Virus record (IMG/VR): IMGVR_UViG_3300037492_000285
Coordinates: 35,120-99,119 of that record
DNA from: a virus
DNA length: 64,000 nt
Strand: one strand, 5' to 3'
A model generated the notes under the pieces. The model was not told the DNA's origin. It made no database searches and worked only from the letters and a program-made list of their open reading frames with translations. This document shows positions 24,701 through 42,356 of the stretch, in pieces. The translations under genes and the position numbers were made by a program. Numbering within the stretch: position 1 is the stretch's first letter; every line of letters starts with the position of its first letter.

Positions 24701-27700
24701 GCAGGTAACATTACACTTGCAACTACTCTTTATGATAGCATAAGTCTTAAAGAAATTGATCTATTAGATAGAGGAAATCCTAACATAAGAGATACTTATA
24801 CACCTATTAAACCTATTGTTTCTGGTAATAAAAATAATGGTAGAGATTATAATGACGTAGTCCTACATAAATTTGCATTAGTACCAATATCATATAGAGT
24901 TATGTATGAATTAAATCCTAATTCAAACATGTTAAAACTTTATGATAAAATGGAAACTGAACAAGTTGATTATGCTGTATATGAATCAGGTAGTAAAGTA
25001 GGTACTGAAAAACTTACTAGATTATATGATGATAAGGGAAACTTTAATACTGCTCCAATACAAACTCCTGAAGAATTATTAGATCCATATTCAGAACAAG
25101 CTATATCTAATATTCCTTATTCTATCGTAAGTGTACAAACAGAAGTTCCCTCAAAAGATACTCCTAAAGTTACACAAGGTTCACAAATTACCAAACTTGT
25201 CACTCTTGATTTCATGGATGCAGGCGTACCCATTGATTTTCATATAAAGGACAATAAAGGAAATCTCATAACAGATTTTGATCAAAGATTTATTGCTTGG
25301 ACAGCATTGAAAACAGATGCTGAAAAATTTGAACAATCTTCATTATATAAAGAAATAAAAAATAATCAAAAACTTTTAGAAGCTAAGATTGAAAATGGTT
25401 ATTATTCTTTATTAAAAAAATTAGGAATTAAAAAAACAGATGATGGATTTGTTCTTTTTGATAAAGCCAGATTAATAAATACTTTAAAGGATGAAATTTT
25501 AAAAAGAGAAGTAAATGATAATATATTAGATGCATTTGATGGATTTAAGAAAGGAGATGTTGTACTTGAAGCTACTCCTGCATATCAACAAATAAGGAAC
25601 ATTCTTTATTCTATTGCGGATCATAATGTTGTAAGACCTAAGATTTCTGGTGGTATGAAGGTACAAATTCCATCTACTCTTTTAGAATCCGTTAGGGCAG
25701 TTCCTGTAATAAAAAAAACTAGAAAAGGAAAAGAAGTATTAGGATATTCCTCTGATGTTTTAAAATTTTATGAAGATGTTGATGGAAAACGTTATTGTGA
25801 AATAATGATTGGTAGATGGTTTAGTAGTACAAAAACTGATAAAGAGTTAATTGAATATTTTAATAATACAAAAGAAGGACAAGCACAAATGGCTGCTTTA
25901 GCAGGTGTTGCTTTTCGTATTCCTACACAGAAACAAAATTCAATTGATGCTTTTAGAATTAAACAATTTCTTCCTACTGAATTTGGTGATTCAGTTGTAA
26001 TTCCTTCAGCATTAGTAAATAAATCAGGATCTGACTTTGATATTGATAAACTTTCAATTTATTTAAAAAATGTTATCACAGGTAAAAATGGTTTTCCTGA
26101 AGTTATTAAACTTCTTACAGATGAAAATTCTACTATAGAAAAAAGATATACTAAATGGGTAACTTCAGTTAGTGATAGAGATGTATCTAAATATGTACAT
26201 TTTTTGAATAAAGGAATTATAAAAGAACTTAGGAGTAATTTTAAAAATGAATTAGTTGAAATAAGTAAAAAATATAAATCTGAAGTAAGTCTTGAAAAAA
26301 CTAAAGCTTATGAGGAACTTGTTAATCTTTACGAAAACGATCTTAAGAAAAATTTAGCACATTCTGATCAAGAATTATATTTAGAAGAATTATTTGATGT
26401 AGGTAGATCTGTATTCTTTAGATTATCTCCAACAACTAGAGTAGATTATTTTGAACTTAAACAAGAATTAAAAGAACAGAAGATTGAAGGTCCTGCAGAA
26501 ATAGAACAGTATCTTGCTTTAACTATATCTAAACTTTGGAGTAATCAAAATCCTAAAGATGCTGAAGAGTTAACTAATCTTGCTAAAATTTATGAAGAAG
26601 AATTAAGAGCAATAGGTATAGCGACTGATTATATAAATGAATATAAAACAAAAGCTCTTGCTGCATTTAGAGAAAAGAAGACTACCGCAATTCGTGAAGT
26701 TATTGATATAATTAATCGTGTAAGAGAAGGTATAACCTATGATTATTATGTTGAAAAAGATGAATTAGAATTACTTGCAGCTAAAGAAATGGCTGAAATG
26801 GATGAATTATTATCTATTGAAGAATTTGCAAAATTATCTATACTTCAACAAAATACTAAAGAAGCTCTTGAAAATTCATATATTGAATCTTTAGAAAATT
26901 TAATATCACATCCCTTAAATTTTGCAAATTTAGTTAAACCTAATTCTGCAGAACAAATGAAGGTTTTATCAAAAACTATTAATACAAAACTTGGTATAGC
27001 TGAAAAGGATTATTCTTCTGTAGGAAATATGCTCAATAGAAGATTTATGACAGGTTTAAGACAAGCTTTTGTAGGAGGTAGATATGCTATTGGTATTGCT
27101 GCAGTAGCACAAACTAATCATGCTCAAAATCAACGTGCAGTAACATTTCTTGATCCATCTAGATTAGCTACTATTAATATACCAGATTCTGATAAAACTA
27201 TTCTTGGATACAATAAAGATGCAAAAAGTTATGCAACAGATTCAAATATTAATTTTGCAGAATATAATTCAATCAAAATTAATGGAATAAAAAAACCTAC
27301 ATTATCTAAAATAAAAGATGCATTAGGAATAAATTTTATATCAGATATCATTGGACAATTTATTGATGGATATGTTGATATATCTAAAGGACCTTGGATT
27401 ATGGATTTAGGAGCAACTCCTAATGTAGCAGGAACTTGGTTATTCCTTATTAAATTAGGTGTACCAATTAATAGTGTTGCTTATTTTATGAATCAACCTA
27501 TTATTCGAGAATATCTACAAAAAATAGATAATAAAGGATATTCCTGGTTATTTATTGGTACGTTTGTTGACCAAATGTTATTAAAATATAAAACAAACGC
27601 AACTTTTAATGAGACAGGAACAGTAGTAACAACTATTCCAGGAGAAACCCTTCTTGGTAATAATGTTGGTAAAGCTCTATCAGAAATGTCAGAACTTGAA

Positions 27701-30178
27701 AAAGCTGAACAACAATATATGCTTAAAGAGTTTTTGAAATATGCTAAAATGGCTTCACATTTATTTGATGTTACACAGGGTTCTAATTTTGATACTGCTA
27801 ATCTTAATGATCCTTATTTAATATTTAAAAAACTTTTACAATGGAAAAAGGCACAAAACACAATGATATCATCTGTAGATGATTTAATGGAAAATTCTTT
27901 TGTGGCATTCTTAAAAACTGCAATGCTTAATGTAAGAGATGCGTTTACAACTATTCTTATTTCTGATAGTAATAAAACTGATGGTACTAGAGCATCGGTT
28001 AGAGACGTTATTGAAACTGTATTAACTCCTTATATAAGTATTAATGATAGAGATTTTATTAGACTTTCTCAAAAAGCAGTCAATGATCTGTTTGATTGGG
28101 CAGTACAAACAAACACCCAACTCAATAATAAAATAGCAAACATATTACTTGGTGTAAAAGATCCAGCTACTAAACAAATACTGATTGATAGTGCTGCTGT
28201 TGAAATAATGAAGTTTAAAGAAAGTATATTAGGAAATAAATCTGGAACTATAAAAGCTCAAGAAAATCATCCTTTATATAACAATATCATATTAAGATCA
28301 ATAGATATAGAAGTAGGAGGAAAAGAAAATAAAGTTAACAATATCTATATAACAGGAAGAGACAATAAAGTATATGATCAAAATCTTATCATATATGGAT
28401 TTGAAGAATTAAAGAAAAACTTAACTGATAATAATAATCTTGAACTGTATACTAAATTAGTAAGTCTTGCAGTAATACAATCAGGTCTTACTAATTCAAA
28501 AATTGCTTTTACTAATCTTCTTCCTTATGATGATTTCAAAGAAATATATAATGAAACCTTGTCTGAATTAGAAAATATGAGTAATTTAGCAGACTTTGCT
28601 AAACTTAATGTATTTGAAAGAAACAATTGGAATAATGACGATGTTGCACCATTTCTTAAAGATGAACTAACTAAAAGTAAAAGTGGAAGATATTATTATA
28701 AAAATCAATTTTTTGTAAATGAAGGTCTTAGAAAAGCATCTGAAAAAGGATTACTCCCTAAATTAATTAGAATCTCAACAGCTTCATTTGAAGGACGTTC
28801 TGATTTTATGGTATATAGTTGGGAAGATAAAATAGGAAGTGCTGAAAGAATTAGAAGAAGAAAATCTGATAATAAATCACATATCCATAAAGTATTAATG
28901 AAAAAAGTTTATATAGAAACTAAACAAGGTAGAAAACCTCTCATTCAAATTACTGAAAGTAATGGGAGTTTATACTATAGTTATGTATATAAAGCAATTA
29001 ATGCTTGGGGAGATTCTTTTAAAGCACAAGAATTTTATGATAAATTAAATCCTAATGATGGTAATTCAACTATAGGACCTGCATCTGTAATAGATAATGG
29101 ATTTGATAAAGTGCAAAAAACTCTTGATCAATATGGCAGACAAACATCTTCTAATGAAATGGAAGATATTGATATTATTTCTTATTATACAGGCGATATA
29201 TATGGTATGACAAAAGATGAGTTTTCTAATATAGAATCAATTGTTCAATCTCCTTCTATTATTCCTACACAATCTAATAATATAAATATATATGCAGGAA
29301 CAAATGAAAATGCTGATTTAAGTAATTTTGCAGAAAGACCAGTTAGAATAGGTGGTATGAATTATAAAAATGTAGAATCTGCATTTCAACATACTAAATT
29401 AACATTTTCTAATCCTTTAACTACTCAACCTATTGCAATTCAAGAAGCCCAATGGTTTAATCTTACTGGGAAAGAAGCAAAAGCTTTAGGTAAATTATTT
29501 AAAGGATTAGATACTGTAGAATGGGATAATCAATCTTCTTCTATAATGAAGACTATATTAAAGGAATCCTTTATTCAAAATCCAAATGCTTTACAAAAAC
29601 TTCTTGCTACAAATAATGCTACATTAACTCATACCCAAGATAGAAGTAAGTGGGGTACAGAATTTCCTAAATTATTAATGGAAGTAAGAGAAGACTTAAG
29701 TATTGAACCAGTATCTACTAATATTAGAAATGCAGAAGAAATATATTCTAAATTAGGTAATAAAACAGTTTCAGAAAATGTTAAAATAGTTGATAAACCC
29801 TATCTCTATTCTGATGAACAAAAGAAAGGAAAAGCTATTGTAGCTTATAAATCAACTAAAATGCCAACATCTTTTGAAAATCCTTTTCATACAAGTGGTA
29901 AAACTACTAAAGAAAATGTGATTGACTTTATTGATTTTTTCTTAAATAGTAATGAGACACAAGCTGTTTGGATGAGAAACAAGGCAACGTCAGGAGAATT
30001 TAAAGGAAAACCAATTTATTATGGAAACACACAAGCCACTAAAGAAAATCAACCTTCCCATGCAACAGCAATAGACTATCTAATCAATAAATATGATTGG
30101 GATCAAAGGAATGGTATTAATAAAAATGCTCCCGAAGGACTTCCTCCTATTAATAGAACACCTAAAACTTGCGAATAA
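15713..30178 (+). CDS. Giant crAss-like virion RNA polymerase fused to NADAR and other domains
   Basis: A single uninterrupted frame of 4821 residues. Residues 1-470 contain Gly/Ala-rich hydrophobic stretches (about 95-120 and 182-215). About 930-1210 is charged and predicted coiled coil, and about 1720-1760 is a Pro/Thr/Ala linker. A zincin-like helix with HEVFE sits at 1970-1974; the second His is Glu, so it is probably inactive. D3441-F-D3443-I-D3445, within VNKSGSDFDIDKLSIYLKN, matches the catalytic aspartate motif of the crAss-like virion RNA polymerase, a two-barrel enzyme characterised in phage phi14:2. About 4524-4662 is a NADAR domain (LSNFAERPVRI, conserved Glu at 4555, SKWGTEFPKLLMEVREDL). 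The last 130 residues resemble DUF4326. In relatives this polymerase is packaged, ejected and transcribes early genes. It is much longer than the 2180-residue phi14:2 protein. Confidence 0.9.
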   Translation: MQDPIVNLSGSPEVPDLVNANGSARPVSNNVQAEYNPLNDTSLNYISAPTRSYDASSVTMEEAAPFRTGRYNNVLYGYNNEDAAAQRQGWTSKMVNGVGKGLLLTGTTFVQSTAGLLNGLYQMVDDGRFASFYDNDFNRKIDEITKAAEDILPNYYSDAEKNSRWYSPSKLFSANFLWDGIVKNLGFAAGAALSGGVFATGLKSLSLLPGLAKLVSIGKGAEVLAASTEEAVAAAATAGKVAEGYGKLKAISNQFLGSYKTLNAGNRAVVAGLATTGEAGFEAFNNLNQFRDDKIEEYKNTHGGLDPIGAELDKINKASESVGNSSFLANVALLSVTNYIQFPKILGSSYRAEKDIINGVSRKIGEVTTDTTGKFIEKAVTGNKFLSALNKIRPYTFSVPEGFEEGAQYAIQIGTQDYYDKKYDNSATSAIGSIFEGIKETVGTDEGMENILIGGLSGALMLGRGRYKENSAKDINTKAAIESFNKSKLSDFTSDTIDSVNRGTVLQEDREELLKAGKITDSKDKEADYIINYLSPRIKYGRFDLVRSDIAEYRTLASTEEGFAQLQAEGKALASDTREAYLTRLAKFEATAENTKSLYQSLNLRYGGKVDVDKNPMYTSAVMDKMVYAAAKVADYDDRLPSVEATLVNAGIDIGTVNADLITGNFESYNAAMEKVKTLDSTIQEDVGEALYSVGQMTVRRNLFLQEYTDIKNNPKEYTSKEEKEALEKKASIAAVPPTSEPTAPEIEKTNITIRTKFGETTYQTNTEYILGKVSTFNTNGDEIIHLPRLTILKDNGDKTIDVQDSKGNVKTIEKTELESYNLTPSSRLATDKKFKFFHDNRNMLYYHHGIKLKNGKSAVGRLRFSGKKGKLIFAYVDDKGVVQEKEIWNTLFKAKPGFHQGMVAPINILTEDQQKSEKAFVEDNTTVSDSLQMRNDVIADLYEKSLDRLAKVRKDLEQARDKISKSQEILTEKSTALDNENSKKRRSIKKINAIKNELAVLSETHNKLTIELAQLENEKEELEAVLPNFLNFIADLENLPDDVTDIINILKGDIDTIDQTINNVKDSITQTTTLLKDIEDTLVRALSLFNDYIKRLKEENPNVPLFIEDFQDRIEKIYGEEGAKQFIAERLGFTETVIELQSNIADFQNELRIPEFTNKLEKVTDELKSLDTQLNDLINLQLAKQELLESFKEVIEKQKKEEEESEQLQKNESLKHAYIGTHELSIQNFITGTQYEPASKKDNKAVVRGTRPIAKGKDHQVRANNFGFNFPKFTKKVQEKIKGIVVTFNTEDQILKGLSDHLLAGLTDAEKEKYKKEELVALVLVQDNGDGTFTLINEKGKPISKTKTGKYINPLNLAIYQTFPMGDLMGSYPDKNNPKIFTRQSMFREDINPDLKTRLEKEYTAWRINQLSQKTLGGLHEIKVSFGIPEYVGEMRRDEKTGKEYFDRDTSARVPVQKSGLITDNDLKEKQVVTVATTNDDITEGGVTFKTPRGRVFLKIANFGIAKLFNRKFNESEASVIFDVIHQISKEGATSGKMTPETKKLIEWLKTVVYWGIAKDRFTNERKPAGYNNVWFETVKTEDGGDVTKLFISGISNTPTQGFTFTPMSLQDNKRDIIYLLTQLYHNTNAHRVNEGSWKKPYIQIIGIDKTGTLITKKWSNYQTYLLSDKSPDSEGNLTIARNVDDIPLVTQHRPLKNAEDVNRHSIYFTLNSPTTDFDFTEPAPTPTVETPTPTSKVVTAPTAAPATTTPAASNQGAFAASGAFIFDGLTINIITTTYGKIYFRFNSKTNEINYVNYDDSIIDQLKLPVNEGGYGLTTDAEIEKSIQGSIQRRILQHLENAAVPEASPIIDAPTVTPAVSVDEDVAAKLANIIVDDEGQVPPIDDDEWNEPGGQDNKAYRLEIVENYKNFKREDWSKLEEWFKTHFKNIPIYRVKNIIQATNGKQAWGMLHKGAIYLYENAEVGTAYHEVFEAVWKMFAGPTDKQLIIDEFRNRKGSYTDRFNKDDSGKPIVIKYSKATPEQIKEEIAEEFREFILSGKTVATTQKGKSLISTLFHDIINFFNTYFFGKSARLNTQKLFDKIGNGYYNEFNPYASKLNYAETGIIDIEDMQGDTTSEFSKVKNIPALQVHEVIQHMTFHVLRSLTRTNQDLFSIPNLNKTELYSNLKKQVELTIRSKRDAYVALSKNGEIPEEEANFKINNLKYLYGQFQSNWNDIILKHEDYLKKFNIEFDENDELALDEDKGKEDPYGNARQIDTFRKANSAIKLLFGSLPYVKRITTRDTTGKEISTTITQSSSFGGVTLLPADKVNIELLNKLHDSVDLNEMLTRLQKLAIDNPNYEALYYRLTKSESSNAVDYDTLKDHDWHLINAFWKAMKKQNADVITVFILPAGDIVISDSALSSATKQAKRTLSNSMISKIKKTNNKDDSGTKYFTYNDRTGKYTVTPLAKNIKFSSSQLEGYIKFLSELGIDFTMDDLDKLDTIEHRTKLNIFRNAVEGIQLSISKLEPILENGKVKTDAEGHPIDFSISSISSRTLDIDKNLMQLATIKAVLENPEFESTYFNLNGDRTQTYVGTNALSNLHHVLSKLENINELTDDIRGYSEFKFLLTDKFAKGSILLQRMFNLSDDGSGNRISGTEYILKPVFIDGTVNEQNGKKKESSKQTYKQRLIQELNLNIDGVYLNLVPGDASMEHASRLHDRENPFVTSDDYDNKEYLEIFKDYFMSEVELSRDDRRVVGKNKSTDLRFFKAILADNSKTKDEDINRLHNKIINTSKKVSSQKLYKDNKKEIDAAVEKFIKQEGDDVYALLTAFEIIKETEEGITVENLLLTEGLELTETALREKLNILSINYIIANIEFHKIVYSDPYQYSDELKRIKNFLSPREPLMHGSATVMSAINTQYNQDYLETENDLGYSDMNRDHFRSITLADLFSYDDTIQDYSNAYEEPEGGGYIVMKGLRLFRILGGTWSDDNERQYKYDVAWEKRKKAEIAKAAGNITLATTLYDSISLKEIDLLDRGNPNIRDTYTPIKPIVSGNKNNGRDYNDVVLHKFALVPISYRVMYELNPNSNMLKLYDKMETEQVDYAVYESGSKVGTEKLTRLYDDKGNFNTAPIQTPEELLDPYSEQAISNIPYSIVSVQTEVPSKDTPKVTQGSQITKLVTLDFMDAGVPIDFHIKDNKGNLITDFDQRFIAWTALKTDAEKFEQSSLYKEIKNNQKLLEAKIENGYYSLLKKLGIKKTDDGFVLFDKARLINTLKDEILKREVNDNILDAFDGFKKGDVVLEATPAYQQIRNILYSIADHNVVRPKISGGMKVQIPSTLLESVRAVPVIKKTRKGKEVLGYSSDVLKFYEDVDGKRYCEIMIGRWFSSTKTDKELIEYFNNTKEGQAQMAALAGVAFRIPTQKQNSIDAFRIKQFLPTEFGDSVVIPSALVNKSGSDFDIDKLSIYLKNVITGKNGFPEVIKLLTDENSTIEKRYTKWVTSVSDRDVSKYVHFLNKGIIKELRSNFKNELVEISKKYKSEVSLEKTKAYEELVNLYENDLKKNLAHSDQELYLEELFDVGRSVFFRLSPTTRVDYFELKQELKEQKIEGPAEIEQYLALTISKLWSNQNPKDAEELTNLAKIYEEELRAIGIATDYINEYKTKALAAFREKKTTAIREVIDIINRVREGITYDYYVEKDELELLAAKEMAEMDELLSIEEFAKLSILQQNTKEALENSYIESLENLISHPLNFANLVKPNSAEQMKVLSKTINTKLGIAEKDYSSVGNMLNRRFMTGLRQAFVGGRYAIGIAAVAQTNHAQNQRAVTFLDPSRLATINIPDSDKTILGYNKDAKSYATDSNINFAEYNSIKINGIKKPTLSKIKDALGINFISDIIGQFIDGYVDISKGPWIMDLGATPNVAGTWLFLIKLGVPINSVAYFMNQPIIREYLQKIDNKGYSWLFIGTFVDQMLLKYKTNATFNETGTVVTTIPGETLLGNNVGKALSEMSELEKAEQQYMLKEFLKYAKMASHLFDVTQGSNFDTANLNDPYLIFKKLLQWKKAQNTMISSVDDLMENSFVAFLKTAMLNVRDAFTTILISDSNKTDGTRASVRDVIETVLTPYISINDRDFIRLSQKAVNDLFDWAVQTNTQLNNKIANILLGVKDPATKQILIDSAAVEIMKFKESILGNKSGTIKAQENHPLYNNIILRSIDIEVGGKENKVNNIYITGRDNKVYDQNLIIYGFEELKKNLTDNNNLELYTKLVSLAVIQSGLTNSKIAFTNLLPYDDFKEIYNETLSELENMSNLADFAKLNVFERNNWNNDDVAPFLKDELTKSKSGRYYYKNQFFVNEGLRKASEKGLLPKLIRISTASFEGRSDFMVYSWEDKIGSAERIRRRKSDNKSHIHKVLMKKVYIETKQGRKPLIQITESNGSLYYSYVYKAINAWGDSFKAQEFYDKLNPNDGNSTIGPASVIDNGFDKVQKTLDQYGRQTSSNEMEDIDIISYYTGDIYGMTKDEFSNIESIVQSPSIIPTQSNNINIYAGTNENADLSNFAERPVRIGGMNYKNVESAFQHTKLTFSNPLTTQPIAIQEAQWFNLTGKEAKALGKLFKGLDTVEWDNQSSSIMKTILKESFIQNPNALQKLLATNNATLTHTQDRSKWGTEFPKLLMEVREDLSIEPVSTNIRNAEEIYSKLGNKTVSENVKIVDKPYLYSDEQKKGKAIVAYKSTKMPTSFENPFHTSGKTTKENVIDFIDFFLNSNETQAVWMRNKATSGEFKGKPIYYGNTQATKENQPSHATAIDYLINKYDWDQRNGINKNAPEGLPPINRTPKTCE

Positions 30179-30179
30179 T

Positions 30180-33100
30180 ATGCCTTGTAAAATTGAAATA
30201 AGAAAGAATATAACACGAGATGTTATAGATCATTCAGACCATGCCCTTAGAATGTCTCTTGAGGATGCTAATCAAGTTGCTAGTAAGATCAATAATTCAT
30301 ATGGAGTTAGGGTAGTCTCTTTTGGTATGGAAGGAGAAGATGTTGTTGCTAGACATATAAATATACCATCAACTCTCGTTGATGTATATTATAATCATGA
30401 ATTAAAATTAGAAGCAAAAAATCAAGAAATTATTGATCAGTCTGCAGAAGATCTCCAACAATCTGAAATAGAACGAGGAACTCTAGCAGAAGAAGATCGT
30501 AATGAGTATTATCAAATTAAACAAGAACAATATCACGAAGGGTTGCGTGAAACACTTTTAAAATTTCTAAAAGGAATAAATATTACAGTGGATGATCATG
30601 CTACTGATTTATTATCTTCACTTAAGTTTAAAGATACTCCTACAGCAGCATTCGATGTACTTCAAAAATTTTTAGCATTAAAAGATGATATTACCGATCC
30701 TGATTTAGCTTTACAAGTATCTAATGTTATATACACTTTTCTTGGAAAAAAATCTAAATTAGCTAAAGACTTATGGTTTAATGTTAACAAGTGGTCTAAA
30801 TATAAAGAAGTATATGATAGATTTTCAGGTGTCCACGAAGAAGTTTCAGAAGATACTGATTATAAAGATGAAAGAGTAAACAACTTTGCTCATAAACAAG
30901 CCATAATTCACTTAATAGCTGAATCTATACTAAATAATTATGGAAAGACTATAGATGTTAAATCTCAGGATAATCCAGATATAGATAAGACTTATTTTGA
31001 AAATCTTGGATATAGGGATAAATATGAAGTTAATGTTCTTAAAAATCTTCTTAATGGCGTTTGGAATTGGATAAACAAAAATATATTACAAAATAAACCT
31101 TTTCGTGAAGTAGATGAACAAGGATTAAAAGATACAATATTAGATATTGTAGATGATGTTTTTAAACAAGATTATAAAAAATTTGTACGAAACACATTTA
31201 TGAAAGATGGTAAATTATATAAACAAGATGGTAAAGAACTTGAACTTAAGGATTATGATGAAACATTAAATAAGGATTCATTTGCTAAAGAAATTATAAC
31301 CACATTGGTAGAACATCCTTTTATGGGATATAAATTATCAGGGAGTCAAACCTTACGAAAATATGGTAAGGTATTTAGACCTATTGATGAAGATCTTCAT
31401 GATATTGATGGTGTAATTACTCTTGATCAATTTAGGAAAGAACAAAATTCACAAGAATTTTTACGTTGGTTAAGAACACGAGGTTTATTTTTACAAAAAA
31501 ATAATAAACGAAAAGAATTTACAAAAGGTGTTGAAAAGTTTCTTTCTGAAGAAGCTTGGTATAAAAATCTTAAAATATTATTTCCTAGTTGGAAATTGGA
31601 TGTAGCATTTATTGGTAAAGATCACAAAAATGCAGAAAGTGTAACCATTACAGGGAGTATTGCGCATCCTACAGAAATAGATCCTAAGACAGGAAAAAAT
31701 AAATTATATGTTATGGATTTCTTTCTTAGAACAGATGAAGGATTTTATCCTGAAATATTTGATAACTATTGGAAAGATTGGAAACAAATATTTGAGGCAA
31801 AACTTAATATGGGAAGATCTAAAGATCTAGAAGATCTTATTTATTTTGATCCATTTATTCAAGATAAATATAAATTTACTAATAAAGGATTTCGATATTT
31901 TACTTTTGCCAGTAATGCTGAATTTGGAAATAATCAAAATCAATTAACTGATATGTCTATGTCAGCAGCATCTGAAGAAACTTTAAATAAGGTGAAGGAA
32001 GCTGCTAAGAAAATGGGTATTAATATTGAAAATCTTGCAGATTATGCTAAAAAAACAGGACTTGATATAAAATCTATTAATGGTGTTGCTGATCTTATTA
32101 AAGGAATTGTAGCAATTGCTCAAGGGGTTGAAAATATTGCATTAACTGAAGAAATGGTACATATAGCTACAGCTATATTAGAACAAACTAATCCTGCATT
32201 TATAACACAATTAATTTCTAAAATAGATAAGTTTAAAATTTATGATATTACTCGTAAAGCTTACGCGGGAAATAAAAATTATCAATTATCAAACGGTAAA
32301 CCTGATATTCGTAAAATTAAAAAGGAAGCAGTTGATAAATTAATTGCAGAACTTATTATTTTTCAATCTGAAGGAAGTACAGAATATCCTGAATTAAGGG
32401 AAGAAAAAAATCAGTCTATTATTAAACAATGGTGGAATTGGATCCTTGGTTATATAAGAGAAGTATATAGAAAAACTAATATTTCAATATTTGAAGAAGC
32501 TGCACAAAAAGTTATGGCAGCAGATTATGGAACTATATCGGATATAAAACGTAAAGATACATTTTATCAAATTAAAAATGATAAAGTGGATGCTTTGTAT
32601 GATACTGTTATAGATAGAGATAGTAGAATAGAAGGACCTATTCCTGCAACTGATACAGATAAAAGACATTATTTATTTGATGGAAAACGTGTAGCAAAAA
32701 GTGTAACTGAAAAAGTTAAAGCTTTTTTAAAAATGCCAACACGAACTCCTGCACAACAAATTATAGATGATCAAAAAAAAGAATGGGGAAGTGAAGGACA
32801 TGCATTTATATATAAATATATCACTACTAACCTTATAGATAAATTAGGATATAGACTAGATGTGCCACTTAACATAAGAATTGATAATGCATTTACGGAG
32901 GAAATAGAAAAAGCTTTAATAAACTTTTCTAAAGAATTAATAAACTCTTATAAAGATGGTACTAGATTTCTCTTAGAAAGAAAAGTAGTCAATGAAAAAG
33001 TTAAAGGGTTAATTGCTTCTGCTATTGACTTTATGGCTATTGAACCTAATGAGGAGACAGGAATGAAAGTGGATATTCTTGATTGGAAATTCACTAGTAT

Positions 33101-36100
33101 TGATAAAACACGAGAAGATGATATTCCTTGGTTTAAACAAAAAGAATGGATTCCTCAAATGGGTGAATATTCTAAAATGTTATATAATTATGGAGTTAAG
33201 CCTAATCAGTTGAGAAAAACTCGAATGATTCCTTTTATAAATAATTATAGTTATTCTGTACCTGGAGATACTAAAAGTGCTCTTGTTCCTACATCTGTAG
33301 AAGTTGGAAAAATTAATAGTCTTACAGAAACTAATTTATATTTACTTCCTGTGGCTCTTCCAACAGAAAGTACAGGAAATAGTAAAATAGATAAACTTCT
33401 CGAATCATTACGTCAACAACATAAAAAACTTTTTTCAAAACCTGTTTCTCCTGAAGATAAATTTCAGAAAAATATAGAATTAGCAGCATTAAGTGCTGCT
33501 ATTAGATCTTTGCATTTAAGATTGGATTTTAAACCATTGATTAGTGTTGGTAAAACATTTTTAGATAATGCTAAAGTGGTAATATCATCTTTTGAAAATA
33601 TTGATTATTCCAAATTAACTGTAAAAGAAATACAAGATAAATTAACTAATCTAATAGAATATGGAAAGAGTGCTGAGAAATATACAAAACTTGATGACAT
33701 ATTTCTTTCTCATTTTCCCAAAGAAGGATTAACTAAAGAAGATCTTGACATATTAGTAAGTTTAGATCGTCTTAGTAGTGCTACAGAAAGAATGGTCCAT
33801 AAGATAGAAACTATTCAAACAGAATATGTTATACAACTTGCTTTAAGTAGGGGAATTAATCTTGACGTTGTTGTAACTCCAGAAGGGGAACGTAAAATTC
33901 AAGCTGAAGCAACAATAAGTGGATTTGTAAGAACTTTTGAAGAAGCTTCAAAACTTCCTGCAAAACTTATTAATCTTGCTACAAATCTTATAGTAAACTC
34001 ACATAATTTAGTTGATCTAATTTATGCTGAAAAAATGAAAGCATATGAGAAAATTATAATTCCTTTAGAGAAAGAAGCAAGGGCGAAAGGTGTTAAAGCT
34101 TTTAATATGATTGGAAATATATCTACTACAGGATTAAATTTAATTCGGAAAATAGATAAAGTTTTTTGGAATGAATTACAAGATGCTAGAACCAAACATG
34201 ATAAAAAGTTTTTTTTAAGTAATTTAGATATTGTTGAATATAATAAATTATCAAAAGACATTATTGATAAGGGTATTGAATTATTAAATAGGCAAAATTT
34301 TTCGAGTGATGAAAAAACAAATGAAGAAAAAAAATCAGCAGCCATAACAAGACTTAAAAACTCTATTGATATAAATAGAGATACATTTAATGGATATGAA
34401 GGATTTCAGTTTGGTAGACTTATAAATCAAACATTGATTGAAGAAGGACATTTATCTGAAGAATATTTAAATATGTCCAAAAGTGAGAATGCTTTAAGAG
34501 TTTGGGAATTTTTTACAGAATTAAATCAAAAAGGAAAACAACTTGGTTATCTTGAGAAAGAAGGAACTTCCTTTTTTCCATTAATTGAAGCAACTACTTT
34601 ACATAAATTTAATCAAACTCAAAATTATGGAGCTCAATTAAAAGACTTTTTTACAGATTTATATTCAGTTAGAATAAATGAAGAGAACGCATATTCAAAA
34701 ATTGATCCAGAAACTCAAAAGAAAAGAAAACAAATACCTAAATATTTTACAAAAACTGATAAAAAAGTAGAACAATTATCTACAGACCTTAATCAAGTAG
34801 GAGGACTTTGGCTTAAAGCATTATTAGATTATGAAAATTCTAAAAGTATGGAAGGTACTCTTCAAACTATTTTAATTGTAGAAAAAGCTAAAGGGAGTCT
34901 TATTTTAGATGAACAAGGAGACGTCATGTTTGATGGTGCTGTTGTTAGAGTGGATGAATCAGTTAATAAAAATGCTAATATTTTAGAAGCAATTGTAGAT
35001 GATCATTTATATAATTTACAGGAAGATGCTAATTCTATAGGTAATTTAAGTCTTTCTTCTGTTACAGGAAAATTAAAGAAAGATAAAGAATCAATAGAAA
35101 AAACTGAAGTTTCAATAAAAAAGGGAATAAAAAATGCAGATGTACTTGTCAGAGTATTGGGTGTAGGATTAAAACCTTTAATCGGTCTTTCAAACTGGGC
35201 AGGATTTCAATTACATGCATTTATTACTTCTGGAAGTTTTTATACATTTTCAGAATTTGAAAAAAACAATGCAAAAATTACAACTAATCTTGGAATTTCT
35301 ACAATTGAAAGAGGGTTGTTAAATCTTATTGTTCCTTTAACTGAAAATATAACTACAGAAATGAGAAGGCGTATGGCAAAATCTCAAGGATTTCTTGAAT
35401 ATTTAAGTACTTGGACATTTTCAGATGTAATGATGGTTACTAGTTCATTTCCTGAAAGAAAGTTACAGTTTGCTAATGCTATGAGTTTTAATCAAAATTC
35501 AATGGTAGTTAATGGTAAAATTGTAAACATTAGACAATATGTAAAAAAACAAGATAGACAAGAAAAATATAAAAAAAATGAAGATGGTTCATATGTATTA
35601 AATGAAACAGAAAGATCTGCTTTAGATAAAACTTATGAAGAAAGAGTTAATCAATTAAAAGAAACTTCGTCATTAGTTAAAATTGCAAAAATAGAAAATG
35701 ATGAAGTTATTATTCCAGGAGTATCTACTGAGGCATTATCTGAATATCGTACTAAAATTATTGAACATACTAGAACTTTAAATGGTCAAATGACTGAAGG
35801 TAATAAAGCTGGATATAGAAGAGATACTATATTAACATCTTTTATGATGTTCAAGACTTGGATTCCTAAACTTACATCAGGTCGTATATCTGGTATTCAA
35901 AAAAACATAGAACTTGATGAATGGCAATATGGAAGAGCTAGAGTTTTTATAAAAACATGGGCACATCTAGGAACTAAAAATATTATGAAAATGCGTGATA
36001 TTATACTTGGTACAGATGAAGGACTCAAGATATTAAATGATATGTTAGAAATTAAAAGACAAGAGTATTTTAAAAAAACAGGGCAAACTCTTGAAATTTC

Positions 36101-36578
36101 AGAAGAAGAATTTTATGACTTAATGAAAAATGAATTAACTAGAGAATTAAAAGAACTCGAAACATTATTTTTATTAATGGGTGTTATAATTGCTACGAAA
36201 GTTGCTGCTCCTCCAGATGATTCAACCGATTTGGAAAAAAATAGATTTAAATATTTTAGTAAGGGTATAAATAAAATAGTTGATGAAATAGCATTTTATT
36301 ATAATCCTACATCTATGGAAACTATAACTAGAGGAACAGTACTTCCTGCATTAGGATTATTAACAAAAATTGAAAAAATTATTGAAAGTTTAAGTAAAGA
36401 AGTAATTGGTTATGCTATAAATGATGAAGATATGGTAAAAAAAGCTTATCCAATGAAATATTTTCTTAATATAATTCCTGGAGCAGCTCAATTTAATTCA
36501 GAAGTTCTTCCTTATATAGCACCAGAATTAGCTAAAGAAATGGGCATACGAGTTACTTCACAATCTAGAAGACAATAG
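30180..36578 (+). CDS. Giant virion protein with nucleotidyltransferase-like and PD-(D/E)XK domains
   Basis: ATG 30180 lies one base after the preceding stop and starts MPCKIEIRK; the frame is open further upstream (from 30093), but that would overlap the polymerase gene by 86 bases. The product has 2132 residues. G388-S389, D408-I-D410 and D513 (in VMDFFLR) look like the three acidic positions of a Pol-beta-type nucleotidyltransferase, followed by IFEAKLNMGRSKDLEDL near 537-553, a typical end of such domains. EWGSEGHAFIYKYI, D950, D968-W-K970 and QMGEYSKMLYNYG form a PD-(D/E)XK nuclease pattern. LTEEMVHIATAIL near 655 is of unknown meaning. The C-terminus (NIIPGAAQFNSEVLPY, EMGIRVTSQSRR) is typical of the protein following the polymerase in crAss-like phages. 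It is probably packaged with it; the catalytic activities are inferred from motifs. Confidence 0.8.
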   Translation: MPCKIEIRKNITRDVIDHSDHALRMSLEDANQVASKINNSYGVRVVSFGMEGEDVVARHINIPSTLVDVYYNHELKLEAKNQEIIDQSAEDLQQSEIERGTLAEEDRNEYYQIKQEQYHEGLRETLLKFLKGINITVDDHATDLLSSLKFKDTPTAAFDVLQKFLALKDDITDPDLALQVSNVIYTFLGKKSKLAKDLWFNVNKWSKYKEVYDRFSGVHEEVSEDTDYKDERVNNFAHKQAIIHLIAESILNNYGKTIDVKSQDNPDIDKTYFENLGYRDKYEVNVLKNLLNGVWNWINKNILQNKPFREVDEQGLKDTILDIVDDVFKQDYKKFVRNTFMKDGKLYKQDGKELELKDYDETLNKDSFAKEIITTLVEHPFMGYKLSGSQTLRKYGKVFRPIDEDLHDIDGVITLDQFRKEQNSQEFLRWLRTRGLFLQKNNKRKEFTKGVEKFLSEEAWYKNLKILFPSWKLDVAFIGKDHKNAESVTITGSIAHPTEIDPKTGKNKLYVMDFFLRTDEGFYPEIFDNYWKDWKQIFEAKLNMGRSKDLEDLIYFDPFIQDKYKFTNKGFRYFTFASNAEFGNNQNQLTDMSMSAASEETLNKVKEAAKKMGINIENLADYAKKTGLDIKSINGVADLIKGIVAIAQGVENIALTEEMVHIATAILEQTNPAFITQLISKIDKFKIYDITRKAYAGNKNYQLSNGKPDIRKIKKEAVDKLIAELIIFQSEGSTEYPELREEKNQSIIKQWWNWILGYIREVYRKTNISIFEEAAQKVMAADYGTISDIKRKDTFYQIKNDKVDALYDTVIDRDSRIEGPIPATDTDKRHYLFDGKRVAKSVTEKVKAFLKMPTRTPAQQIIDDQKKEWGSEGHAFIYKYITTNLIDKLGYRLDVPLNIRIDNAFTEEIEKALINFSKELINSYKDGTRFLLERKVVNEKVKGLIASAIDFMAIEPNEETGMKVDILDWKFTSIDKTREDDIPWFKQKEWIPQMGEYSKMLYNYGVKPNQLRKTRMIPFINNYSYSVPGDTKSALVPTSVEVGKINSLTETNLYLLPVALPTESTGNSKIDKLLESLRQQHKKLFSKPVSPEDKFQKNIELAALSAAIRSLHLRLDFKPLISVGKTFLDNAKVVISSFENIDYSKLTVKEIQDKLTNLIEYGKSAEKYTKLDDIFLSHFPKEGLTKEDLDILVSLDRLSSATERMVHKIETIQTEYVIQLALSRGINLDVVVTPEGERKIQAEATISGFVRTFEEASKLPAKLINLATNLIVNSHNLVDLIYAEKMKAYEKIIIPLEKEARAKGVKAFNMIGNISTTGLNLIRKIDKVFWNELQDARTKHDKKFFLSNLDIVEYNKLSKDIIDKGIELLNRQNFSSDEKTNEEKKSAAITRLKNSIDINRDTFNGYEGFQFGRLINQTLIEEGHLSEEYLNMSKSENALRVWEFFTELNQKGKQLGYLEKEGTSFFPLIEATTLHKFNQTQNYGAQLKDFFTDLYSVRINEENAYSKIDPETQKKRKQIPKYFTKTDKKVEQLSTDLNQVGGLWLKALLDYENSKSMEGTLQTILIVEKAKGSLILDEQGDVMFDGAVVRVDESVNKNANILEAIVDDHLYNLQEDANSIGNLSLSSVTGKLKKDKESIEKTEVSIKKGIKNADVLVRVLGVGLKPLIGLSNWAGFQLHAFITSGSFYTFSEFEKNNAKITTNLGISTIERGLLNLIVPLTENITTEMRRRMAKSQGFLEYLSTWTFSDVMMVTSSFPERKLQFANAMSFNQNSMVVNGKIVNIRQYVKKQDRQEKYKKNEDGSYVLNETERSALDKTYEERVNQLKETSSLVKIAKIENDEVIIPGVSTEALSEYRTKIIEHTRTLNGQMTEGNKAGYRRDTILTSFMMFKTWIPKLTSGRISGIQKNIELDEWQYGRARVFIKTWAHLGTKNIMKMRDIILGTDEGLKILNDMLEIKRQEYFKKTGQTLEISEEEFYDLMKNELTRELKELETLFLLMGVIIATKVAAPPDDSTDLEKNRFKYFSKGINKIVDEIAFYYNPTSMETITRGTVLPALGLLTKIEKIIESLSKEVIGYAINDEDMVKKAYPMKYFLNIIPGAAQFNSEVLPYIAPELAKEMGIRVTSQSRRQ

Positions 36579-38819: not shown

Positions 38820-40520
38820 ATGTCAAACTCAAATGTATATATCAAAAGTGGTATTTGGAGAAAGACCACAACTCCTGTAAAAGGAGAATTAAATCTTGAC
38901 GCAATAATTGCAGCAGTTAGTCCTCCTTCTGCCCCTTCTATTATGATTGCAGGAACAGGAACATGTTCTACAATGAGAGATGGAAATTTTAATAGTGCAT
39001 CTGGTCTTTATTCAACTGTTGGTGGTGGGTATGGTAATACAGCATCTAATCCTGTTTGTTCAAGTGTTGGTTCAACTGTTAGTGGTGGAATAAATAATAC
39101 AGCATATAATAGTTATTCAACTATTAGTGGTGGAATTGGTAATGTGGCATGTGGTAATCGTGCAACTGTTGGTGGTGGAAATAGTAATACAGCATCTGGT
39201 TATTGGTCAACCGTTAGTGGTGGATATATTAATATAGCATCTGGTTATATTTCAACTGTTGGTGGTGGATATAGTAATACAGCATCTGGTTATATTTCAA
39301 CTATTAGTGGTGGAAGGGTTAATATAGCATCTGGTCGATATTCAACTGTTAGTGGTGGAAATCTTAATACAGCATCTGGTGATTGTTCAACTGTAGGTGG
39401 TGGAATATGTAATACATCATCTGGTTTTATTTCAACTGTTGGTGGTGGAAGGACTAATACAGCATGTGGTCAATATTCATTTGTTGGTGGTGGGGAAAAA
39501 AATACAGCCTCTGGTAATAACGCAACAATTGGTGGAGGAATATGTAATAATTCTACATATCTTGGAACTTTTGTTGGTGGAGGAAATAAAAATTCAGCAA
39601 CATCATATTATGATGTAGTAGTAGGTGGAGCTTGTAATACTGCTTCAGGAATGTATTCCTTTATAGGTGGTGGACGTAGTAATCGAGTATCTGGTAGAAA
39701 TTCAACTGTTAGTGGAGGATATTATAATTGTGCGATAAGTGGAAATAGCGCTATAACAGGAGGAGACTTTAATCGTATATATAGCGGTTATAATTCGTTT
39801 ATTGGTAGTGGAAGTTTTAATTCTATATGTGGTACTCTTGCGACAATAAGTGGTGGTGGATGTAATTTAGCTACAGGAACACTTTCGACAATCAGTGGAG
39901 GAGGGAATACTGCATCATTATTTTATCCACCTACAACTCGTCCAGGAAATATAGCAGCGGGATATGCCTCAACGGTAAGTGGAGGATTTCAAAACTGCGC
40001 ACTTAATGATTATTCTTCTGTATCAGGAGGATGTAATAATATAGCATCTGGTCAATATTCAGGTATACTTGGTGGACAAAATAATACTACAGCTGGTTTT
40101 GCAGATTCATTCATTATTGGTTCTAATCTTACAGCAGGAGCAGTTTGTACCACTTATGTTAATAATCTTTGTGCTAGTGGTGGAATATATGGAGCAACAA
40201 AATCATTTGTAATTCCTCATCCAACCAAGCCCACAATGACCCTACAATATGGTGTCTTAGAAGGACCTGAACATTCTGTTTATGTTCGTGGAAGATTAAC
40301 AGGAATAAATAAAATTACACTTCCTGAATATTGGATTAATTTAGTCCATGAAGATACAATAACAGTACATCTTACGCCTATTGGGGATTATCAAGCCCTA
40401 TCGGTCAAATCGGTCACAGCTAATGAGATTGAAATTAATGGAGTCCAGATAGATTGTTTTTATAGTGTATATGCCGAAAGGAAAGATATAGATAAACTAA
40501 TAATAGAAAAAAACATATAA
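38820..40520 (+). CDS. Tail fibre with YadA-head-type repeats, first copy
   Basis: 566 residues. Residues 1-40 (YIKSGIWRKTTTPVKGELNLD) share a pattern with the N-terminus of the collagen-like fibre at 49632 and probably dock it to the virion. Most of the protein is 14-residue repeats of the form STVSGGxxNTASGx, matching YadA/Hep_Hag head repeats of trimeric adhesins, which fold as left-handed beta-roll trimers. The C-terminal 110 residues (TLQYGVLEGPEHSVYVRGRL, LPEYWINLVHEDTITVHLTPIG, CFYSVYAERKDIDKL) form a beta-sandwich-like end domain known from phage fibres. It should bind the host surface as a trimer. A second fibre follows after three bases, with shared DNA. Confidence 0.85.
   Translation: MSNSNVYIKSGIWRKTTTPVKGELNLDAIIAAVSPPSAPSIMIAGTGTCSTMRDGNFNSASGLYSTVGGGYGNTASNPVCSSVGSTVSGGINNTAYNSYSTISGGIGNVACGNRATVGGGNSNTASGYWSTVSGGYINIASGYISTVGGGYSNTASGYISTISGGRVNIASGRYSTVSGGNLNTASGDCSTVGGGICNTSSGFISTVGGGRTNTACGQYSFVGGGEKNTASGNNATIGGGICNNSTYLGTFVGGGNKNSATSYYDVVVGGACNTASGMYSFIGGGRSNRVSGRNSTVSGGYYNCAISGNSAITGGDFNRIYSGYNSFIGSGSFNSICGTLATISGGGCNLATGTLSTISGGGNTASLFYPPTTRPGNIAAGYASTVSGGFQNCALNDYSSVSGGCNNIASGQYSGILGGQNNTTAGFADSFIIGSNLTAGAVCTTYVNNLCASGGIYGATKSFVIPHPTKPTMTLQYGVLEGPEHSVYVRGRLTGINKITLPEYWINLVHEDTITVHLTPIGDYQALSVKSVTANEIEINGVQIDCFYSVYAERKDIDKLIIEKNI
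39213..39425 (+). repeat. 213-bp exact repeat, copy 1 (in first fibre gene)
   Basis: Identical base for base to 41661-41873 by direct reading. Divergence begins at both edges (C/T at 39212, T/G at 39426). It encodes five 14-residue fibre repeats and preserves frame and register. Confidence 0.95.
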
Positions 40521-40523
40521 GTT

Positions 40524-42356
40524 ATGGCAATACCTTCGAGACAAATAGGTTGGAGTGATGATTCAAACCTATTACAAAATATATTAAAACAACTTTCACG
40601 GCTCACACAAGTGGTAGCTTCTACAGTTGTACCTATTCCTCCAAGTTCATCTATTATGATCTTGGGAACAGGAACAAATTCCACAATGCGTTGTGGGAAT
40701 AGTAATAGTGCTAGTGGAGATTATTCAACTGTTAGTGGCGGATTTACTAATACAGCATCTGGTCCTATTTCAACTGTTGGTGGTGGAATAAATAATACAG
40801 CATCTGGTTATCGTTCAACTGTTAGTGGTGGAAATAGTAATACAGCATCTGGTGGTTGGTCAACCGTTAGTGGTGGATATATTAATACAGCATCTGGTTA
40901 TGTTTCAGTTATTAGTGGTGGAATTTATAATATAGCATCTACTAATTATTCAACTATTAGTGGTGGAAATAATAATATAATCTCTAATGCAACTTGTAGC
41001 TTATATTCATTAGGCGCAACAATATCAGGAGGTGTTGGTAATAATACCACAGGAGGAACGTGGAGTTCAACTTATTGGGTTGTATCACCAACTCCAATAG
41101 ATGCTGGATTAATGAGTTTTGTTGGTGGAGGATTTCAAAATATAGCATCTGGTTATCGTTCAACCATTAGTGGTGGATATAAGAATACAGCATCTAATGC
41201 TGGTTCAACTATTGGTGGTGGAAGGACTAATACAGCATCTGGTATTTATTCAACTGTTAGTGGTGGATATACTAATACAGCATCTGGTTATTGGTCAACT
41301 GTTGGTGGTGGAAGGAGTAATACAGCATCTGGTAATTATTCAACTGTTAGTGGTGGATATACTAATACAGCATCTGGTTATTATTCAATTGTTGGTGGTG
41401 GAAAGACTAATACAGCATCTGGTGATTATTCAACTGTTGGTGGTGGAAGTAGTAATACAGCATCTGGTAATCGTTCAACTGTTGGTGGTGGATATTGTAA
41501 TACAGCATCTAGTGATTATTCAACTGTTGGTGGTGGATTTACTAATACAGCATCTGGTAATTATTCAATTGTTGGTGGTGGATATTGTAATACAGCATCT
41601 GGTGATCGTTCAACTGTTAGTGGTGGAAGGAGTAATAAAGCATGTGGTAATATTTCAACTGTTAGTGGTGGATATATTAATATAGCATCTGGTTATATTT
41701 CAACTGTTGGTGGTGGATATAGTAATACAGCATCTGGTTATATTTCAACTATTAGTGGTGGAAGGGTTAATATAGCATCTGGTCGATATTCAACTGTTAG
41801 TGGTGGAAATCTTAATACAGCATCTGGTGATTGTTCAACTGTAGGTGGTGGAATATGTAATACATCATCTGGTGATTATTCAGCAATATTAGGTGGAAAG
41901 AGTAATACTACAGCTGGTTTTGCTAATTCATTTATTGTTGGTTCTAATTTAACAGCAGGAGCTGCTTGCACAACATATGTTAATGCTCTTTCAAAAACAT
42001 CAGGAACATTCAGAATAAATCATCCAAATCCTGCAAAGACTAATACACATTATTTACAACATTCATTTGTAGAAAGTCCAACAGCAGGGGATAATATTTA
42101 TCGTCATATTGTTAGAACATGTAATTGTAGTGGAATAATTGAACTTCCTGATTATCACAAATATTTAAATGAGAATGATCAGGTGTTTATTTCCGCTACA
42201 TGCCATTTAGGATATGGATTTGGTGTGGTGAATAAAGAACAAACGTGTGTAACTGTCACCACAAACAGTGATGGTGAATATAATGTCCTTTTGATAGGAA
42301 CAAGAAAAGACGTTAATGCTGTAACAGCATGGGACGGAATAGAAATTTTAAAATAA
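40524..42356 (+). CDS. Tail fibre with YadA-head-type repeats, second copy
   Basis: 610 residues, beginning MAIPSRQIGWSDDSNLLQNI, a module found again in the 44-residue protein at 44470. About 450 residues of 14-residue STVSGGYTNTASGY-type repeats follow, with an unusual insertion near bases 40990-41110. The C-terminal domain (HYLQHSFVESPTAGDNIYRH, IELPDYHKYLNEND, LIGTRKD) belongs to the same general end-domain class as the first fibre but is clearly diverged. The pair may be alternative or co-assembled receptor-binding proteins. Repeat DNA is shared with the first fibre, so recombination between them is likely. Confidence 0.85.
   Translation: MAIPSRQIGWSDDSNLLQNILKQLSRLTQVVASTVVPIPPSSSIMILGTGTNSTMRCGNSNSASGDYSTVSGGFTNTASGPISTVGGGINNTASGYRSTVSGGNSNTASGGWSTVSGGYINTASGYVSVISGGIYNIASTNYSTISGGNNNIISNATCSLYSLGATISGGVGNNTTGGTWSSTYWVVSPTPIDAGLMSFVGGGFQNIASGYRSTISGGYKNTASNAGSTIGGGRTNTASGIYSTVSGGYTNTASGYWSTVGGGRSNTASGNYSTVSGGYTNTASGYYSIVGGGKTNTASGDYSTVGGGSSNTASGNRSTVGGGYCNTASSDYSTVGGGFTNTASGNYSIVGGGYCNTASGDRSTVSGGRSNKACGNISTVSGGYINIASGYISTVGGGYSNTASGYISTISGGRVNIASGRYSTVSGGNLNTASGDCSTVGGGICNTSSGDYSAILGGKSNTTAGFANSFIVGSNLTAGAACTTYVNALSKTSGTFRINHPNPAKTNTHYLQHSFVESPTAGDNIYRHIVRTCNCSGIIELPDYHKYLNENDQVFISATCHLGYGFGVVNKEQTCVTVTTNSDGEYNVLLIGTRKDVNAVTAWDGIEILK
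41661..41873 (+). repeat. 213-bp exact repeat, copy 2 (in second fibre gene)
   Basis: Identical to 39213-39425, direct orientation, 2448 bases apart. Homologous recombination between the copies would delete the intervening DNA and produce an in-frame hybrid fibre with the N-terminus of the first and the C-terminus of the second. Confidence 0.95.

What the first reader, a model, noticed from the sequence alone, without database searches (positions are those of the whole stretch)
31335..31860. Nucleotidyltransferase-like domain in the second giant protein
G388-S389, D408-I-D410 and D513, followed by IFEAKLNMGRSKDLEDL, follow the Pol-beta-type nucleotidyltransferase layout, although the gap from GS to DxD is 18 residues, longer than the usual 9-13. 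Such folds include toxins and antitoxins (MNT, AbiEii), tRNA-modifying and signal-making enzymes. A packaged one would be a new kind of ejected effector.
Basis: partly seen in the sequence, partly recalled or inferred. Interest (0 to 1): 0.65.

Follow-up and report, generated by a model that had tools for sequence, protein, structure and literature searches.

The report
Phage-packaged nucleotidyltransferase in a swappable slot
A crAss-like bacteriophage carries, at the front of a giant protein packed in its particle next to its RNA polymerase, an enzyme domain that probably attaches nucleotides to a host molecule; related phages carry other effector-type enzyme domains in the same slot, so it looks like an interchangeable weapon injected with the DNA.

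Summary
With the start at 30180, G388-S389, D408-I-D410 and D513 lie where stated. The domain has no Pfam, PHROG, NCBIfam, PADLOC or PDB sequence match, but 20 aligned homologues from environmental phages keep GS, R400, DxD, D513, K541, R546 and K548-D549..D552 invariant; a 29%-identical homologue keeps them too. These residues match the four mutationally tested AbiEii/DUF1814 motifs, with a longer spacer. AlphaFold gives the expected topology. Foldseek's best hits are Pol-beta-superfamily enzymes, but none is significant.

The phage is crAss-like and the protein directly follows the virion RNA polymerase gene. Homologous polymerase-block proteins of crAss001 and phi14:2 were found in virions. 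The domain is an N-terminal cassette: 20 of 20 large contigs with >=95% identical capsid protein gave no match, and those read carry ART-PolyVal, GNAT, unknown or no cassette there. Phages with 24-28% capsid identity carry it at 54-70% identity. This supports an ejected, exchangeable NTase effector; its target is unknown. Pol-beta NTases in such "polyvalent proteins" were already predicted, so this is a new variant.

Unexpected: these giant proteins are almost cysteine-free except for one cysteine at each facing terminus, also in phi14:2, crAss001 and Lbo-JY46.

The parts
30180..36578 (+). second giant protein of the virion-RNAP block (2132 aa); start one base after the RNAP stop codon
   Evidence: synteny in 26 relatives
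30522..31238 (+). helix-rich conserved half of the N-terminal module, preceding the NTase; contigs found with it that were read also carry the NTase
31239..31920 (+). Pol-beta-type nucleotidyltransferase domain (the finding)
   Evidence: alignments A3/A6; AlphaFold model m5578672612da pLDDT 78.7; Foldseek
31341..31346 (+). motif I, G388-S389
   Evidence: invariant in A3 and A6
31377..31379 (+). R400, invariant Arg between GS and DxD (compare motif II Arg of AbiEii)
   Evidence: PMC3985639
31401..31409 (+). motif II, D408-I-D410 (metal-binding DxD)
31716..31718 (+). D513, third carboxylate, on the strand VMDFF
31800..31835 (+). motifs III/IV: K541..R546 and K548-D549-x-x-D552 (+DxxD)
   Evidence: PMC3985639
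31941..36575 (+). backbone of the giant protein shared with close relatives that lack the NTase; the cassette boundary is at about 31920-31940
32787..33150 (+). PD-(D/E)XK-like stretch (EWGSEGHAF..DILDWKF), recognised by eye only
   Evidence: no Pfam match; PDDEXK domains in crAss-like transcription proteins are known (PMC7886860)
15713..30178 (+). giant virion RNA polymerase protein (4821 aa) with the DxDxD motif GSDFDID at 26033-26047
   Evidence: PMC7886860
30170..30172 (+). penultimate residue C4820 of the RNAP protein (junction cysteine)
30186..30188 (+). C3, the only cysteine of the 2132-aa protein (junction cysteine)

Best explanation
The stretch encodes a divergent Pol-beta-superfamily nucleotidyltransferase of AbiEii/DUF1814-like motif layout, plus a helical half that travels with it. 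[quoted passage not shown] Inferred course: the protein passes unfolded through the tail, refolds in the cytoplasm and, with Mg2+ held by D408/D410/D513, transfers a nucleotide from an NTP to a host molecule (a tRNA or other RNA, or a protein) in the first minutes of infection, for host takeover or counter-defence. Shown here: the motifs and their invariance, the genomic position, the cassette exchange. Shown by others for homologous blocks: packaging in the virion. Inferred: ejection of this protein, catalysis, target and benefit.
For: Invariant GS/R/DxD/D/K/R/+DxxD in 20 homologues and in a 29%-identical one; the equivalent residues are needed for AbiEii toxicity (PMC3985639). AlphaFold topology and Foldseek hits mostly within the Pol-beta superfamily. 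Crassvirus identity from TerL, portal and MCP. Directly downstream of the RNAP-block protein in the loci compared; RNAP-block proteins are in phi14:2 and crAss001 virions. Cassette behaviour: no match in 20 of 20 large contigs with MCP >=95% identical, although most of these hold the rest of the protein; there the slot holds ART-PolyVal (E 8e-15), GNAT (E 1e-4), unrelated stretches of 100-570 aa, or nearly nothing. Carriers have MCP 24-28% and TerL 28-36% identical to the window but the NTase 54-70%; only G002 carries it on the window's own capsid type. ART, GNAT and Pol-beta NTase are three of the four protein-modifying families listed for polyvalent proteins (PMC5512222).
Against: No significant sequence or profile match to any known NTase: Pfam, NCBIfam, PADLOC, PDB; AbiEii profile PF08843 gives nothing at E<=10 in 17 carrier records; hhalign against phiKMV-type phage NTases gives none. 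Foldseek E-values are not significant (best 0.02) and PDB is rich in Pol beta entries. The model is less certain around the GS helix and poor at the C-terminal helices. Being the best conserved part of the protein would also fit a core function in the phages that have it.
Confidence: 0.62

Rival explanations
1. The NTase is an auxiliary enzyme of the virion RNA polymerase: it acts on the phage's early transcripts (tailing, end modification) or on the RNAP itself, and is not a host-directed effector.
For: Adjacent to the RNAP protein in carriers, and in L044 fused into one 5567-aa frame with it; it is the best conserved piece of the block; Foldseek lists a poly(A)-polymerase-head phage protein and OAS1.
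Against: Absent from very close relatives with a 60% identical RNAP; carried by RNAPs only 22-28% alike; the same slot holds ART or GNAT domains elsewhere. A core RNAP partner would co-vary with the RNAP.
Confidence: 0.2
2. It acts as a counter-toxin: like MNT antitoxins it adds NMP to a host toxin or defence protein (for example a HEPN RNase) and silences it. This is one specific form of the best explanation.
For: MntA adenylylates HepT (abstract of PMC7641770); the polyvalent-protein NTases were predicted to act this way (PMC5512222); a possible counter-defence domain, NADAR, is fused to the neighbouring RNAP protein.
Against: The motif set with +DxxD resembles AbiEii-type toxins more than minimal MNT; no direct evidence for any target.
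Confidence: 0.2
3. A catalytically dead, structural NTase fold used for packaging or binding.
For: The only known context is structural; no activity has been shown.
Against: All metal- and nucleotide-binding residues are invariant at 29-70% overall identity, and close relatives do without the domain.
Confidence: 0.08
4. Not an NTase: a chance resemblance in a different mixed alpha/beta fold.
For: No significant profile or fold match anywhere.
Against: Four separate motifs in the right order, all invariant, on the predicted secondary structure expected.
Confidence: 0.07

Closest known systems
AbiEii / DUF1814 (MenT-type) nucleotidyltransferase toxins, PF08843
   Same: G[G/S]..DhD with a long spacer and an Arg, K..R motif, +DxxD motif; all mutationally essential in AbiEii (PMC3985639)
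   Different: No PF08843 match; spacer 18 instead of 15; Arg lies 8 rather than 4 residues before DxD; K to R spacing 5 instead of 7; inside a giant virion protein, not a TA operon
Pol-beta NTase domains of polyvalent proteins (Iyer et al. 2017, PMC5512222)
   Same: An NTase inside a multidomain protein delivered by a mobile element; slot-mates ART and GNAT are from the same catalogue
   Different: Those are minimal NTases mainly of Firmicute conjugative elements fused to ArdC-N; here a larger domain in crAss-like phages next to the vRNAP
crAss-like vRNAP-block proteins (phi14:2 g065-g067; crAss001 gp47, gp49, gp50)
   Same: Block of giant proteins around the RNAP; junction cysteines; RNAP-block proteins are in the virion
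   Different: No NTase reported in the passages read; no detectable sequence relation of the N-terminal module
phiKMV-type phage nucleotidyltransferases (phiNV3 p15, poly(A) polymerase head)
   Same: Best BFVD fold hit by probability (0.89, TM 0.34-0.40); G..R..DxD..D order
   Different: No profile similarity; a small replication-region protein, not packaged cargo

Membership tests
Pol-beta nucleotidyltransferase superfamily | G[G/S] followed by DxD | tested here: met
   G388-S389 and D408-x-D410 invariant in A3 and A6; spacing 18, longer than 9-13
Pol-beta nucleotidyltransferase superfamily | third carboxylate on a following strand | tested here: met
   D513 invariant; predicted on strand 154-164 of the model
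Pol-beta nucleotidyltransferase superfamily | fold match to solved members | tested here: inconclusive
   top PDB hits are OAS1, Pol lambda, Pol beta and Mg561, but best E 0.02
Pol-beta nucleotidyltransferase superfamily | nucleotide transfer activity | not testable with these tools
   needs biochemistry
AbiEii/DUF1814 (PF08843) | profile match above the Pfam cut-off | tested here: not met
   none at E<=10 in 17 carrier records; control genomes ring
AbiEii/DUF1814 (PF08843) | motifs III (K..R) and IV (+DxxD) | tested here: met
   K541, R546, K548-D549-x-x-D552 invariant; spacing differs
AbiEii/DUF1814 (PF08843) | cognate antitoxin AbiEi in an operon | tested here: not met
   neighbours are the RNAP protein and small late genes; judged by gene layout, no AbiEi profile was run
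Polyvalent proteins | multiple effector-type domains in one protein delivered by a phage | tested here: met
   the slot holds NTase, ART-PolyVal or GNAT in homologous proteins; NADAR in the adjacent RNAP protein
Polyvalent proteins | packaging and injection with the DNA | not testable with these tools
   inferred from virion mass spectrometry of homologous blocks
Crassvirales (crAss-like phages) | crAss-like TerL, portal and MCP plus a giant DxDxD RNAP | tested here: met
   PHROG hits, TerL neighbours, DFDID; IHF subunits not tested

The most novel reading that the evidence does not exclude
The NTase is the leading payload of a covalently coupled cargo train. Giant proteins of the vRNAP block are almost cysteine-free but carry one cysteine at each facing end (upstream C-terminus, downstream N-terminus), whatever domain follows. 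If these form disulfides in the virion, subunits would be ejected as an ordered chain and released by reduction in the cytosol, so any effector placed in the slot is delivered right behind the RNA polymerase. The cysteine pattern is observed; the bond and its role are not tested.
Probability: 0.35. Interest if true: 0.85.

Novelty: new variant of a known kind. Interest (0 to 1): 0.62.

Why it matters
It shows that crAss-like phages, a very abundant group, can use the second giant protein of their virion-polymerase block as a carrier with an exchangeable effector slot. That gives a concrete set of candidate injected enzymes (NTase, ADP-ribosyltransferase, acetyltransferase, NADAR) whose host targets can be tested. 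The terminal-cysteine pattern, if it reflects coupling, would bear on how such phages push megadalton amounts of protein through a narrow tail in order.

Tried and rejected
Pfam, PHROG, NCBIfam, PADLOC and PDB sequence searches of the domain and its homologues: only chance-level hits, such as PRP3 and SoxZ, rejected as unrelated. Two scans of bacterial and archaeal genomes found no homologue. tblastn in named phages and plasmids found none. hhalign against eight phiKMV-type NTases was negative. The first AlphaFold run with 10 sequences was too uncertain (pLDDT 65.6) and was superseded. The first idea that the module is a core RNAP partner, because it is so conserved, was dropped when close relatives proved to lack it. 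Direct geometry of the active site could not be measured because the model coordinates were not among the files in the Python box. ART-like stretches in L016, L017 and L023 were seen by eye but had no Pfam match.

Full report
1. The observation. The region 31335-31860 lies in a + strand ORF ending at 36578. With it, G388-S389, D408-I-D410 and D513 are exactly as described, followed by WKQIFEAKLNMGRSKDLEDL. The complete order of motifs occurs in 0.35% of 2000 shuffles of this protein and in only this one of 204 phage ORFs, so the layout is suggestive; the real test is conservation.

2. Conservation. IMG/VR scans gave about 35 contigs with the domain, some of them near-identical. In 20 aligned members G388, S389, R400, D408, D410, D513, K541, R546, K548, D549 and D552 are invariant (A3). 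L082 changes DID to DFD but keeps both Asp. A far homologue, found by profile at E 2e-7 in G040, is only 29% identical and reads LTGSTALSEQGTILRPNENPLHDID ... VIDFF ... WKDIFAAKLKFARYKDIWD: every one of these residues is kept (A6). In AbiEii, the DUF1814 toxin, a motif I Gly, the motif II Arg and both Asp, the motif III Lys and Arg, and a motif IV Asp (+DxxD) are each needed for toxicity, and its GS-DxD spacer is 15 rather than 9-13 (PMC3985639). The domain therefore has all four motif types, with somewhat different spacings.

3. Fold. AlphaFold with 20 sequences gives mean pLDDT 78.7 and the order helix, strand, GS helix, strand, DxD strand, helical insert, strands, third-Asp strand, two helices. 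Against BFVD the most probable hit is a phage poly(A)-polymerase-head protein (prob 0.89, TM 0.34-0.40). None is significant alone, PDB redundancy inflates Pol beta, and no profile method links the family to a known one. The superfamily assignment rests on motifs, invariance and topology together.

4. The virus. The record is 99 kb. TerL, portal and major capsid protein match PHROGs of those names; TerL is nearest to Leptolyngbya phage Lbo-JY46 (40%) and Cellulophaga phi17:2 (32%), and reaches many crAss-like phages. The upstream 4821-aa protein contains GSDFDID, the kind of DxDxD motif used to recognise crAss-like RNA polymerases (PMC7886860), and is related to the RNAP-block proteins of the other contigs. 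In phi14:2 the block is annotated from virion mass spectrometry, and in crAss001 gp47, gp49 and gp50 are in virions (PMC10172136). Packaging and ejection of the window protein are inferred from this.

5. A cassette, not a core part. The N-terminal module (roughly residues 115-580: a helical half plus the NTase) directly follows the RNAP-block gene in carriers. It occurs as its own 574-689 aa protein (L016, L030, L037, L041), fused to different C-terminal parts, or inside one giant frame with the RNAP (L044). Seventeen of the 20 records searched, counting the window's own and the carrier G002, hold the rest of the giant protein, and in ten non-carriers read in detail the shared part starts at about the same boundary (window residue 588-626 of the 30093 numbering, 826 in L193) after unrelated N-termini of 35-567 aa. 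Two of these are identified: ART-PolyVal (L195, E 8e-15) and a GNAT acetyltransferase (L196, E 1e-4). Conversely, carriers other than G002 in which the proteins could be matched have MCP only 24-28% and TerL 28-36% identical to the window and RNAP mostly 22-28%, but the NTase 54-70%. In a second capsid lineage, of 16 relatives searched besides L041's own contig, only one rang, with the divergent form. Some records are fragments, so single absences are weak, but the contrast is clear: the module moves between phages. The listed protein-modifying families of polyvalent proteins are ARTs, kinases, GNATs and Pol-beta NTases (PMC5512222); three of the four are now seen in this one slot.

6. How it most likely works. 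Shown: motifs, conservation, position, exchange. From established work: Pol-beta NTases move an NMP from NTP to an acceptor using the carboxylates and metal; AbiEii binds GTP (PMC3985639); MenT toxins extend tRNA ends and MntA adenylylates a toxin (abstracts). Inferred: the module is ejected with the vRNAP, refolds and modifies a host RNA or protein early in infection. RNA and protein targets cannot be told apart here.

7. An unexpected feature of the same protein. The 2132-aa protein has a single cysteine, C3; the 4821-aa RNAP protein has two, one of them the penultimate residue. In all 27 loci the second protein begins with Cys at position 3-5 although the following domains are unrelated. 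In 24 of 26 the RNAP side has a Cys in its last five residues; the exceptions, L013 and L016, have it 18 and 7 from the end. Where a third giant protein follows, that junction shows the same pair (L013, L016, L030, L037, L040, L041, L286). Second proteins total 48,344 aa with 34 Cys, of which 26 are the N-terminal one and 6 the C-terminal one. The same holds in phi14:2 (g067 C1797 of 1797; g066 C3 and C2179 of 2180; g065 C3), crAss001 (gp47 C2339 of 2341; gp50 C5 and C2404 of 2412; gp49 C5), Lbo-JY46 (last residue, then C4) and at one junction of Azobacteroides phage ProJPt-Bp1, whose proteins are not otherwise Cys-free. The block's outer ends lack it in these. Disulfides elsewhere in the crAss001 virion are reported, but the passages found do not mention these termini. 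Disulfide coupling of cargo, a composite metal site, or a packaging tag are all open.

8. Verdict. It is a new variant of a known kind, not a new kind of effector.

Noticed in passing
window 30170-30172 and 30186-30188; L013-L041, L191-L200, L286; L288 (crAss001), L289 (phi14:2), L046 (Lbo-JY46), L291: Giant vRNAP-block proteins are nearly cysteine-free except for one Cys at each facing terminus of neighbouring proteins (near the upstream C-terminus and at position 3-5 of the downstream protein), even where domains or gene orientation differ. Possibly disulfide coupling of cargo.
   Followed up: partly
window 29309-29665: A NADAR domain (Pfam E 5e-13, above cut-off) is fused near the C-terminus of the 4821-aa virion RNAP protein; NADARs reverse guanine ADP-ribosylation (abstract of PMC11125620), so this could be packaged counter-defence against DarT-type toxins.
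   Followed up: partly
window 32787-33150: PD-(D/E)XK-like nuclease motifs (EWGSEGHAF, DILDWKF) in the same giant protein, seen by eye; such domains in crAss-like transcription proteins are already reported (PMC7886860).
   Followed up: no
L016 after 5254, L017 7456-8400, L023 after 9712: A stretch VYQGY/VFQGT..LDNR..NYFT..A..YG resembling ADP-ribosyltransferases stands before the NTase in L017 and after it in L016 and L023, as if domains shuffle; no Pfam match.
   Followed up: partly
L044 1-16704: One contig has the NTase module and the RNAP DxDxD region in a single 5567-aa frame, with the module ahead of the RNAP part, unlike the others.
   Followed up: no
window 38820-42356: Two neighbouring proteins made of repeats of about 16 residues (STVSGGxxNTASGxY), like tail-fibre or head-domain repeats; the two share long identical stretches.
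   Followed up: no
L043 2507-4060 (upstream of the window in the same contig): The major capsid protein is 95-97% identical to many environmental contigs while the cargo proteins differ strongly, a marked contrast in rates or exchange.
   Followed up: partly
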